From Eublepharis macularius (Eukaryota; Chordata; Lepidosauria; Squamata; Eublepharidae): a stretch of 64,000 nt of DNA. This document shows positions 29,701 to 32,700 of this stretch, in pieces (the stretch's first letter is position 1; each line of letters begins with the position of its first letter). The notes under the pieces are model-generated. The model ran no database searches and was not told the DNA's origin. It was given only the letters and a program-made list of their open reading frames with translations. Location: positions 97,573,689-97,637,688 of the forward strand of contig NC_072793.1 of assembly GCF_028583425.1 (NCBI RefSeq), given 5' to 3'. The translations under genes were made by a program, and so were the position numbers.

Positions 29701-32700
29701 GAGTTTCGATGGAAGGGCGCCGAAGCCTAGAGACTGTCCCTGAGCTGGATAGCAGCCAACCGTGGCTGTTTTGGAACAGGATGACCGAACAGACGGACGG
29801 GAACACATCCCGCCGCGGCGCCCTGAGTTGGGATTATTCGGAACTTGCCCCATGGAAAGAGCCAACGGAAGTTCCTGAACAAAGTTGGGTGCAGATGCAA
29901 AGTCGCACCCATGCTGTAGATTCCGGCATCTCGGCAGTGACGGGTCTAGCCAAAGGAATTCTAGCAGCGAGATCGCGAGTCGATCAAGGAGATCCTCCGC
30001 CTTGGGGGCCGTTTTCCCCGGTGAGTACAACCGAGGGAGGTTCCGTGATGGGGCAACCGGGTCCAAGCCGAATGCAACAGTTGGAAGCTAGGCTGATCGA
30101 TATGGAGGAAAGTTTGGCTCATGCCATTCACCTAATCTCAGCTATGGGGGCAGGAGAGAGAATATCACCTGAAGAAATGGCTGTACAAATAGCCACCCTC
30201 CAAAGCGTTATGTCCTATCCAGTGGAGGACGCCCCGCAGCAGCCGCTGCCTTCGGGAGAGGAGGAATCCTACCCTGGAGAACCGGGAGAACCGCCCGCGG
30301 AACTCCCTAGATTAGACGAAATTCCGCCTAGCGGGGATACTCCAGCTGAGGTGCCTGGAGAGACTCCAACGGAACCCCCTAAATCGGACGGAGATCCACC
30401 TCCCGAGGAAACTCCAGCTGAGGTGCCTAGAGAAGGGGAAGAAGGGCCAACCCGTCCAACCGAGACGACGGTGATACCCCCTCCCGCTTCTCCAATAACG
30501 GTTCGGCCGGATCAGACGGAAGAGCCTCCGGCTCCTCCTGGGGAGGAATTGCCGCAACAACCGCTAGAAGTGGTTCCCATTCAGCAAACCCCGAGGGACG
30601 GTCTACCGGCACCACAAGACCAGCCTCTGCTTCCCAGAGTCACGACGCCGGGAGGGGCAAGCCCGCGCGGCCCACCACCCATCAGGCCTTCGCCGCTGCG
30701 GCCCCTTCCGCTTCGACCGCAACTAACCCCTTTGCAGCAACCGATACGTTTGCCACTTGATCAACCCGTATTACCACCTCCGAACCAACCGGTGGGGCCT
30801 ACACCACTACGACCCCACCAACCCACCCCTCAGCGGCCGGTCATTACTCAACCGCACCGGCCACCTCCACCTCGACCGCTACTGCCGGCACCTCCGGTGT
30901 TGCCACCACCAGCCCGACCAAGGTTGCAGCCGCCTGCCCGACCACGGCTACAGCCACCGGCCCAGCCGAGGCCACCACCGCCAGCCCAGCCGAGGCCACC
31001 ACCGCCAGCTCAGCCGGTGATGCCGCCGCCAGCTCAGCCGGTGATGCCGCCGCCAGCGCAACCGGCGCCGCTACCACAACCGGGTCCCCAACCACTTCCC
31101 CTCGTACCTCAAGTGCCATTGATGCTTCCGACGGACTTCTACCCAGCACCGGCTCCGAGGCAAGACCTCCCGATGGGCTGGGTGAAACTGGAAGCTACTT
31201 TTGATGGGGATCCCTCCAAACTGGGATTTTTCCTAGTGCAAGTCGTGCAATTCTTCAACCGGTGGGGACACCTCTTCGGCAGCGAGGCCGGTCAAATTGA
31301 GCATCTCGGCTCCCGCTTACAAGGCAAAGCAGCGGACTGGTATGTAGGACTATACAATATCGGGGCCCCGGAACTCAATACTCTCCAGGGGTTGGTGGAT
31401 GCTATTCGAGCACAATACGAAGACCCCTTAGAGGAAACCAGGGCCCGAACAGAATTGCAAGCCATTAAACAAGGCAGCATGTCGGCAAGGGACTATATTA
31501 CGAAATTCCGACAATTAGCTGCCAAATGCCCTAGGTGTGAGGAGTCCACCAAAATCATCCTGTTCAAGCAAGGGCTAAACCCGAGACTTCTGGACAGAGC
31601 CCTTATGCAGGACAATCCCCCTACGTTGTTAGGTTGGATCCAACTTGCATGCGAAGTCGAAAATCGCATTTTGGAAGTCCGTTTGGTTGAACAACAACAA
31701 CAAACGGGACAAAGAAGACCCTTGACTTTACAGAAGGGAGGACGGGGAGCCGGGTACGCCACTCGTGGAGCGAGAGATGCTAGATGGCAACAAGGGCTGT
31801 GTTTGCAATGCGGACAAGCTGGTCACTTTGCAGCACAATGCCCCTACCGGCCTGTGCAACGACCTCCGCTTCAACTACGGCGTCCAACCCTTGCTCCATT
31901 TCCTACTCTCCAACGCCCGATTCCCGCGCCACGCGCGAACAGAGGCCGCGGCGCTGCCCAAAGGCCCGCCTCAGAAAGAGGACTGGAAGCGGAAGAAGTT
32001 ATGGAATACGACCCCGCTTCCCCAAACGCAGAGGTAAATCCAGAAAGCCCCCAGTCGGGAAACGAGATGGATCTGTCGTAAAAGGGCCCAAACGACAGAT
32101 CCACCCCAAGCCCGTCCCTGAACGGAACCGGCCACCTGGGTCCATCTTATTCATGCCAGTGACTTTACTTAACCCGGAGAGGAAGATGCACATCCGAGTG
32201 CAAGCCCTCATCGACTCGGGTTGCTCAAGAGACATCATCGCCCCAGCCCTAGTCAACGGACTAGTTCTACCAACTCGTGAATTGCAAAATTCAGTAATTT
32301 TTGAACAAATGGATGGCACCAATATGAACCCTGTTACCACTGAAACCATTCCAGTAATCACCGGCATGGGCCAACACTGGGAGAAAAGGTCTTTTGTCAT
32401 CAGCTCCACTGCCAAATATCCGTTAATTCTAGGCAGCAAATGGCTATGTGATCACAACCCCTACATCAATTGGGCAGAGGGATGCATCACTTTCAGTCAC
32501 GCCAACTGTAAAAACCATCGCTGGAACCAAAACTGGGGTAGTGATCCAACTCACACCGAGAAGGCTCTTCTCACCCAAGAAGAAATAAACCAAATACCCG
32601 AACCGTACTGGCCCTTTCTGAATGCTTTCTCCGAAGAAGAAGCTGATACTCTACCCCCGCACCGACGAACTGATTGTGCGGTGGAAATCGTACCTGGAGC

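What the first reader, a model, noticed from the sequence alone, without database searches (positions are those of the whole stretch)
32057..32143. Canonical -1 frameshift cassette at the Gypsy gag-pol junction, same heptamer as PEG10
G GGA AAC is in the Gag frame, Pol is in the -1 frame, the spacer is 5 nt, and a perfect 11-bp stem follows, with a loop GGGCCC that could pair with GGGTCC at 32138-32143. Heptamer, spacing and stem are seen directly. PEG10 and Sushi-type elements are known to frameshift at GGGAAAC. The pseudoknot is inference.
Basis: partly seen in the sequence, partly recalled or inferred. Interest (0 to 1): 0.75.

Follow-up and report, generated by a model that had tools for sequence, protein, structure and literature searches.

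The report
Gypsy retrotransposon Gag-Pol frameshift pseudoknot
A young reptile-type jumping gene carries the slippery site and the knotted RNA fold that probably make some ribosomes slip back one base to build its enzymes, and dozens of relatives in the same genome keep that fold although its letters have changed.

Summary
GGGAAAC (32057-32063) lies in the Gag frame, Pol is in the -1 frame, and a perfect 12-bp stem starts 4 nt later, the only Watson-Crick stem of 10 bp or more (loop up to 20) in the element. The element is a chromodomain Ty3/Gypsy retrotransposon, 28988-35955, with open gag and pol and 5-bp target-site duplications. The window alone does not support the pseudoknot (52 of 500 shuffles do as well); copies in the host genome do. 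In 57 aligned junctions the stem 1 core is 92% paired, the loop forms 5 bp or more with the site homologous to 32137-32143 in 52, and own loop-partner pairs beat all 5000 re-dealings. Lineages carry different matched words (GGGCCC/GGGTCC, GGACCC/GGGTCC, GGCCCC/GGGGCC, AGGTTC/GAACCT). GGGAAAC is exact in 37 of 39 near-identical copies, 12 of 12 fetched from a second RT search, and 28 of the 57; 21 of those 29 losses fit CpG decay. Verdict: a -1 frameshift pseudoknot of PEG10/retroviral type, a well-supported new member of a known kind. Frameshifting was not measured.

The parts
28983..28987 (.). target-site duplication CCGTC, 5' copy (other copy 35956-35960)
   Evidence: read directly
28988..29400 (+). 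5' LTR (TGTCAG...CTGACA)
   Evidence: direct repeat with 35539-35955; 1 mismatch and one 4-nt gap over 417 columns
29241..29251 (+). LTR-internal 11-mer complementary to the primer-binding site (candidate start of R)
   Evidence: self-priming is inference
29403..29413 (+). candidate self-priming primer-binding site TTGTTACCAAT
29415..32081 (+). gag ORF; capsid (Retrotrans_gag) and CCHC knuckle lie in its last third
32057..32063 (+). slippery heptamer G_GGA_AAC in the gag frame
32064..32067 (+). spacer
32068..32079 (+). pseudoknot stem 1, 5' arm
32079..32081 (+). gag stop codon TAA at the edge of stem 1 and loop; a gag-frame stop is at the same place in 53 of 57 junctions
32084..32090 (+). pseudoknot stem 2, 5' arm GGGCCCA
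32092..32103 (+). pseudoknot stem 1, 3' arm
32137..32143 (+). pseudoknot stem 2, 3' arm TGGGTCC
32057..35527 (+). pol reading frame after the slip (-1 frame; open from 31784): protease-like, RT, RNase H, integrase, chromodomain
35345..35494 (+). chromodomain at the integrase C terminus
   Evidence: Pfam PF00385, 9.6e-08
35539..35955 (+). 3' LTR

Best explanation
This is the Gag-Pol junction of a recently inserted chromodomain Ty3/Gypsy (chromovirus) LTR retrotransposon. It most likely works by -1 programmed ribosomal frameshifting: ribosomes translating gag pause at an H-type pseudoknot (stem 1, 10-12 bp; stem 2, 6-7 bp; about 33-nt crossing loop). A minority re-pair from G_GGA_AAC to GGG_AAA and read on into protease, RT and integrase; the rest end 7 codons later at a stop placed at the edge of stem 1 and loop. 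Shown here: the anatomy, the frame relation in other copies, and comparative support for the structure, stronger for stem 2 than for stem 1. Inferred: the slip itself, its efficiency, and the pause.
For: Frames, heptamer and stem. Only perfect stem of 10 bp or more (loop up to 20) in the element, 4 nt after the heptamer; 0 of 1000 shuffles above 8 bp. Near-identical copies: -1 relation in 29 of 29 others, stem kept in 39 of 39, loop and partner identical in 39 of 39. Alignment A2 (57 junctions): stem 1 core 92.1% of cells paired; whole structure 89.9% against 35-52% for slid versions. Stem 2: 52 of 57 rows have 5 bp or more and 45 have 6 or more; over the 49 distinct loop-partner combinations mean weight 16.22 against 14.76 (sd 0.27) when partners are re-dealt, 0 of 5000. 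Eight rows with different stem-2 types: own pairing reached by 10 of 40320 permutations. In 21 distinct rows that share the window's register, 98.4% of stem-2 cells pair, with A-U in place of G-C at one pair in 8 rows and G-U in place of A-U at another in 8. Second RT search: 12 of 12 fetched junctions (of 89 places) have GGGAAAC, stem 1 of at least 10 pairs and stem 2 of 6-7 bp.
Against: No measurement of frameshifting. In the window alone the loop-partner match is no better than in 52 of 500 shuffles. Only 28 of 57 aligned junctions keep exact GGGAAAC, although 21 of the 29 others (GGGAAAT 10, AGGAAAC 10, AGGAAAT 1) fit CpG decay. Five of 57 rows have a stem 2 of only 3-4 bp. Some covariation measures do not exceed shuffles: pairs changed on both sides 138/500, 235/500 and 166/500, further pair types 202/500, 243/500 and 499/500. 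Stem 1 over the eight representatives is weak: 1008 of 40320 permutations. The eight representatives and the rows were picked by eye after I had seen their stem 2, so those two results are inflated by choice; some crosses pair as well as or better than own pairs (loop of L085 with partner of L100: 8 bp against 6). Rows are related and many are decayed copies. 14 of 70 places gave no full junction.
Confidence: 0.93

Rival explanations
1. The stimulator is a plain 12-bp hairpin (as in HIV-1); stem 2 is coincidental GC complementarity and the frameshift needs no pseudoknot.
For: Stem 1 is very stable by itself (-18 kcal/mol, pair probabilities 0.79-1.0). Loop-partner pairing in the window alone is matched by 52 of 500 shuffles.
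Against: Loop and partner change together across lineages: 0 of 5000 re-dealings reach the observed pairing, 10 of 40320 for eight hand-picked representatives, and stem 2 appears in at least three registers of alignment A2 (read by hand).
Confidence: 0.08
2. The self-complementary loop GGGCCC is a kissing-loop dimerisation site of the genomic RNA, and the link to frameshifting is secondary.
For: GGGCCC is a palindrome in an A-rich apical loop; self-duplex -12.5 kcal/mol. Ty3 RNA is proposed to dimerise through a palindrome in a hairpin (PMC11381356, passages).
Against: Related lineages have non-palindromic loop words (GGACCC in 7 of the 12 junctions; GGTCTC, AGGTTC, AGACCC) that still match the downstream partner. 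The proposed Ty3 site lies towards the RNA 5' end, not at its frameshift site.
Confidence: 0.05
3. Conservation at the junction reflects protein coding only (overlapping gag and pol), not RNA structure.
For: The region is coding in one or two frames; the neutral simulation (0 of 1000 reach the observed pairing) cannot tell RNA constraint from coding constraint.
Against: The pairing tests compare each loop with its own and with other partners, which coding does not predict. Third codon positions of the pol frame before the alignment gaps are more conserved in helices (seven S1 columns 0.72-1.0; S2 columns 36 and 39, 0.82 and 0.95) than in unpaired columns 30, 33, 54, 57 (0.53-0.67).
Confidence: 0.04
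4. The -1 offset is an inactivating indel of this copy, not a programmed signal.
For: Many retroelement copies are broken.
Against: 29 of 29 other copies checked have the same offset, with the gag stop 7 codons after the slip site.
Confidence: 0.01

Closest known systems
PEG10 (mammalian domesticated Ty3/Gypsy gene) frameshift element
   Same: Heptamer GGGAAAC, 5-nt spacer, downstream pseudoknot, gag-like frame 0 and protease in -1 (PMC2800197 and PMC4598141, passages).
   Different: PEG10 is an immobile host gene; this is a mobile element with RT, integrase and chromodomain. Homology of the two pseudoknots was not tested.
RTL3 (SIRH/RTL family) putative frameshift
   Same: Capsid and protease in -1 overlap (PMC11011659, passage).
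   Different: A host gene; its slip site was not compared here.
Retroviral and coronavirus -1 PRF pseudoknots
   Same: X_XXY_YYZ, short spacer, long stem 1, stem 2 closing over a crossing loop (recalled; general context in PMC5009743, passages).
   Different: Different genomes; no sequence relation tested.
Animal LTR retrotransposons with pol in -1 frame
   Same: PMC5009743 (passage) reports 28 of 51 surveyed animal elements with pol in -1 and many with classical heptamers.
   Different: That passage mentions covariant stem nucleotides only for plant sireviruses, not for animal elements.
Chromovirus contigs in prokaryote bins (L034, L038, L039)
   Same: GGGAAAC in a gag/pol -1 overlap; L038 also has a 6-bp stem 1 and a 6-bp loop-downstream match GTGGCC/GGCCAC.
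   Different: 37-50% RT identity to the window; no shared cassette sequence seen. L034 gave no stem of 6 bp and L039 only 4 bp for stem 2. 9 of the 14 overlaps read had no X_XXY_YYZ heptamer.

Membership tests
-1 programmed ribosomal frameshift signal (slip site plus H-type pseudoknot) | X_XXY_YYZ in the zero frame inside the ORF overlap | tested here: met
   G_GGA_AAC at 32057
-1 programmed ribosomal frameshift signal (slip site plus H-type pseudoknot) | downstream ORF in the -1 frame, overlapping | tested here: met
   298-nt overlap 31784-32081; 29 of 29 other copies in -1 relation
-1 programmed ribosomal frameshift signal (slip site plus H-type pseudoknot) | stable stem 4-9 nt downstream | tested here: met
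   12 bp after 4 nt
-1 programmed ribosomal frameshift signal (slip site plus H-type pseudoknot) | stem 2 between loop and downstream sequence | tested here: met
   comparative; not supported by the window sequence alone
-1 programmed ribosomal frameshift signal (slip site plus H-type pseudoknot) | measured -1 product | not testable with these tools
   needs a reporter or mass spectrometry
Chromovirus (Ty3/Gypsy with chromodomain) | RT, RNase H, integrase in Ty3/Gypsy order and a C-terminal chromodomain | tested here: met
   RVT_1 1.3e-35, RT_RNaseH_2 2.8e-35, rve 4.5e-10, Chromo 9.6e-08
Tf1/sushi group | self-priming: PBS complementary to the start of the element's own RNA (recalled) | tested here: inconclusive
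   11-nt complement 29403-29413 / 29241-29251; RNA start not known
Tf1/sushi group | RT groups with sushi-type elements | tested here: inconclusive
   RT groups (100/100) with three Gekko japonicus and four unnamed rows, apart from the fish, amphibian and fungal rows; 25 hits chosen by me from the 120 listed, midpoint root, no row named sushi-ichi
PEG10-type cassette by descent | homologous pseudoknot and capsid | not tested
   no PEG10 sequence was fetched; only a sub-threshold DUF4939 match of the capsid (20.5 bits, cut-off 29)

The most novel reading that the evidence does not exclude
A large vertebrate retrotransposon clade has kept one frameshift pseudoknot over deep divergence while its second stem was repeatedly rebuilt, by paired base changes and by sliding the pairing register (at least three registers), with stem 1 nearly frozen; sliding stem 2 could be how lineages retune the Gag:Pol ratio. 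These elements could also be living counterparts of the lost ancestor that gave PEG10 its frameshift. Against that last part: PMC11011659 (passage) finds a chromodomain only in its RTL1 proxy, not in its PEG10 proxy, and this element has one; I lowered the probability from 0.3 for that.
Probability: 0.25. Interest if true: 0.62.

Novelty: new member of a known kind. Interest (0 to 1): 0.45.

Why it matters
PMC11011659 (passage) argues that PEG10's mobile ancestor almost certainly frameshifted, yet its chosen proxy has no frameshift. This genome holds an abundant, partly young family with a PEG10-like slip site and a pseudoknot supported by natural covariation. It offers a series of natural variants of one frameshift RNA with which to measure how stem 2 sequence and register set the Gag:Pol ratio.

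Tried and rejected
Led nowhere: viral-contig scans with protease, RT and an RT alignment (no relative confirmed); protein search with the capsid-nucleocapsid piece (none of 1784 candidates at E 0.001); solved structures (11 weak rows, zinc knuckles and unrelated proteins); NCBIfam (only weak, sub-cut-off rows); Rfam (no match at gathering scores). A silent-site comparison after the alignment gaps was dropped because the frame is not fixed there; only its gap-free part is used.

Rejected: palindromic dimerisation loop as the main role (relatives have non-palindromic loops); single-copy indel; coding-only conservation. The neutral simulation is not used as proof of pairing, since coding constraint would also beat it. 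CCCAAAC at 32021 is a second in-frame heptamer but has no stem of more than 5 bp at stimulator distance.

Rows dropped: of the 150 scored places I examined the top 70 (30 loci plus 40 fetched regions); 11 gave no profile match and 3 a partial one (L096, L107, L109); 56 were kept, plus the window. Of 89 places, 12 were fetched, chosen by eye for RT identity and ORF length, not at random. One search used 10 of these 12 (L156 and L159 left out) and 11 rows of A2 that share the window's register, plus the window. The eight rows were hand-picked for different stem-2 types. Of 43 loci, 35 were put into the junction scan, and the 14 with an upstream ORF of 250 codons or more overlapping pol in the -1 relation were read; among the other 21, one (L023) had a long upstream ORF in the other offset and many had the zinc knuckle in the pol frame. 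The 40 copies are the best-scored hits to a query that contains the cassette. The 57-row set was found with a profile built from 13 junctions, 12 of them picked by a [GA]GGAAA[CT] pattern, so junctions unlike these are under-represented.

Full report
What was claimed. The finding is a -1 frameshift cassette at the gag-pol junction of a Gypsy element: GGGAAAC, a short spacer, a stem, and a possible pseudoknot.

The element. Two LTRs, 28988-29400 and 35539-35955, differ by one mismatch and one 4-nt gap, begin TGTCAG, end CTGACA, and are flanked by CCGTC on both sides. Gag runs from ATG 29415 to TAA 32081; Pol is open 31784-35527 in the -1 frame. Pfam finds capsid and zinc knuckle, weak aspartic-protease matches, RT, RNase H, integrase and a C-terminal chromodomain, so it is a chromovirus. 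An 11-mer two bases after the 5' LTR is complementary to a site inside the LTR, as in self-priming elements (recalled for Tf1/sushi; inference here). RT is closest to Gekko japonicus proteins (66-70% identity) and groups with three of them and four unnamed rows at 100/100, apart from the fish, amphibian and fungal rows, in a midpoint-rooted tree of 26 rows that I chose from the 120 listed hits. The host genome is 2.24 Gb in 72 contigs; a gecko-like reptile is inference.

The cassette. G_GGA_AAC at 32057-32063 is in the gag frame. Stem 1 is 12 perfect pairs (32068-32079 with 32092-32103), spacer 4 nt, loop AAAAGGGCCCAA. No other perfect stem of 10 bp or more with loop up to 20 was found in the 6,968-nt element, and only two other sites in the 64-kb window reach 12 bp. 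In 1000 dinucleotide shuffles of 32064-32150 the best stem was 8 bp. Pair probabilities of stem 1 are 0.79-1.0 in three context lengths. The loop can form 7 bp (GGGCCCA/TGGGTCC) with 32137-32143, but 52 of 500 shuffles of the downstream DNA pair as well: from this sequence alone the pseudoknot is unproven.

Near-identical copies. A 221-nt query found 2031 first-look candidates in the host genome; the 40 scored are all at least 99% identical. One is the window. Among the other 39, 37 have GGGAAAC (one AGGAAAC, one GGGAAAT), 39 keep all 12 stem pairs (the changes give G-U or U-G), and loop and partner never change. In the 29 of these with longer flanks, gag and pol are always in -1 relation with the gag stop 7 codons after the slip. 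These hits were chosen by similarity, so they show consistency, not constraint.

Divergent copies. A Gekko RT query gave 17,951 candidates and 150 scored places. I examined the top 70 (30 loci, 40 fetched 461-nt regions). 56 have a full junction at the expected place; with the window they make alignment A2. GGGAAAC is exact in 28 of 57; GGGAAAT 10, AGGAAAC 10 and AGGAAAT 1 are what CpG decay of CGGGAAACG would give; eight rows have other changes. A gag-frame stop is at the same place in 53 of 57.

Stem 1. In A2 the ten core pairs are standard in 92.1% of cells; by row 22 have 10 of 10, 28 have 9, four have 8 and three have 7. U-A to C-G at columns 22/49 occurs in 8 rows and G-C to A-U at 28/43 in 4. 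Re-dealing the 3' arms reaches the observed weight in 4 of 5000, but over eight representatives in 1008 of 40320.

Stem 2. The best helix between loop and the homologous downstream site is 5 bp or more in 52 of 57 rows, 6 or more in 45, and 3-4 bp in five. Re-dealing partners among the 49 distinct combinations never reaches the observed mean (0 of 5000). Lineages carry different matched words: GGGCCC/GGGTCC (window), GGCCCC/GGGGCC (the commonest), AGACCC/GGGTCT (L103 group), GGTCTC/GGGACC (L088), AGGTTC/GAACCT (L101), AGAGCCC/GGGCTCT (L092), and the register in the alignment differs among them (registers read by hand). For eight representatives picked by eye, own pairing is reached by 10 of 40320 permutations, though some crosses pair as well or better, for example the L085 loop with the L100 partner. 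Twelve further junctions from a second RT query (12 of its 89 places) all have GGGAAAC, stem 1 of at least 10 pairs and stem 2 of 6-7 bp; seven carry GGACCC, a fully Watson-Crick match to GGGTCC, where the window has G-U. In rows chosen for the register of the window (21 distinct) stem 2 is paired in 98.4% of cells, with G-C/A-U exchange at one pair and A-U/G-U at another; cells changed on both sides and the covariation score exceed all 500 shuffles, while pairs changed on both sides (166/500) and further pair types (499/500) do not. The same two count measures are unremarkable in A2 (138/500 and 202/500; 235/500 and 243/500).

Other chromoviruses. Chromovirus contigs in prokaryote bins (43 loci), most likely contamination, include 14 of 35 scanned with a long upstream ORF in -1 overlap. 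Of these 14, three have GGGAAAC, one CCCAAAA, one AAAAAAC and nine no X_XXY_YYZ. One of the three (L038) also fits a pseudoknot with two 6-bp stems; the other two do not.

Literature. PEG10 uses GGGAAAC with a 5-nt spacer and a pseudoknot (PMC2800197, PMC4598141; passages). G_GGA_AAC is among the most shift-prone heptamers on mammalian ribosomes, and 28 of 51 animal elements in a 2003 survey had pol in -1 (PMC5009743; passages). PMC11011659 holds that the PEG10 ancestor almost certainly frameshifted while the proxy Gypsy-15_Ano does not (passage); it also finds a chromodomain only in its RTL1 proxy (passage), which speaks against this chromodomain element being close to the PEG10 ancestor. Searches for covariation of Gypsy pseudoknots and for gecko Gypsy frameshifts (the first 12 of 14 and of 143 papers, titles and abstract starts only) showed no report of this cassette; the library holds only open-licence papers.

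Verdict. An ordinary mechanism, unusually well supported by comparison: a -1 frameshift pseudoknot in an abundant, recently active chromovirus lineage (activity inferred from near-identical LTRs and copies). It is a new member of a known kind. The most interesting feature is the repeated replacement and register shift of stem 2.

Noticed in passing
window 27642-28000, 28160-29029 (-), 36197-38131 (-), 39175-40756 (-), 40944-41118: The Gypsy element sits inside a minus-strand retroelement with a weak tyrosine-recombinase match (25.4 bits, cut-off 27.1), an RT match (43.1 bits) and inverted arms 27681-27855/40944-41118 (96%), which looks like a DIRS-type element.
   Followed up: partly
window 29415-31199: Gag has about 590 residues, in good part proline-rich, before the capsid, without any Pfam match in the two pieces scanned.
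   Followed up: no
window 29241-29251 and 29403-29413: 11-nt complement between LTR interior and the site after the 5' LTR suggests self-priming.
   Followed up: partly
window 32079-32081: The gag stop codon lies at the edge of stem 1 and loop; a gag-frame stop is at the same place in 53 of 57 junctions.
   Followed up: partly
window 45816-47286 and 41926-42166: Nested inverted repeats with arms up to 308 nt and 92-95% complementarity, probably another mobile element.
   Followed up: no
L001-L043: Contigs filed under bacterial and archaeal genomes encode chromovirus RTs, most likely eukaryotic contamination.
   Followed up: no
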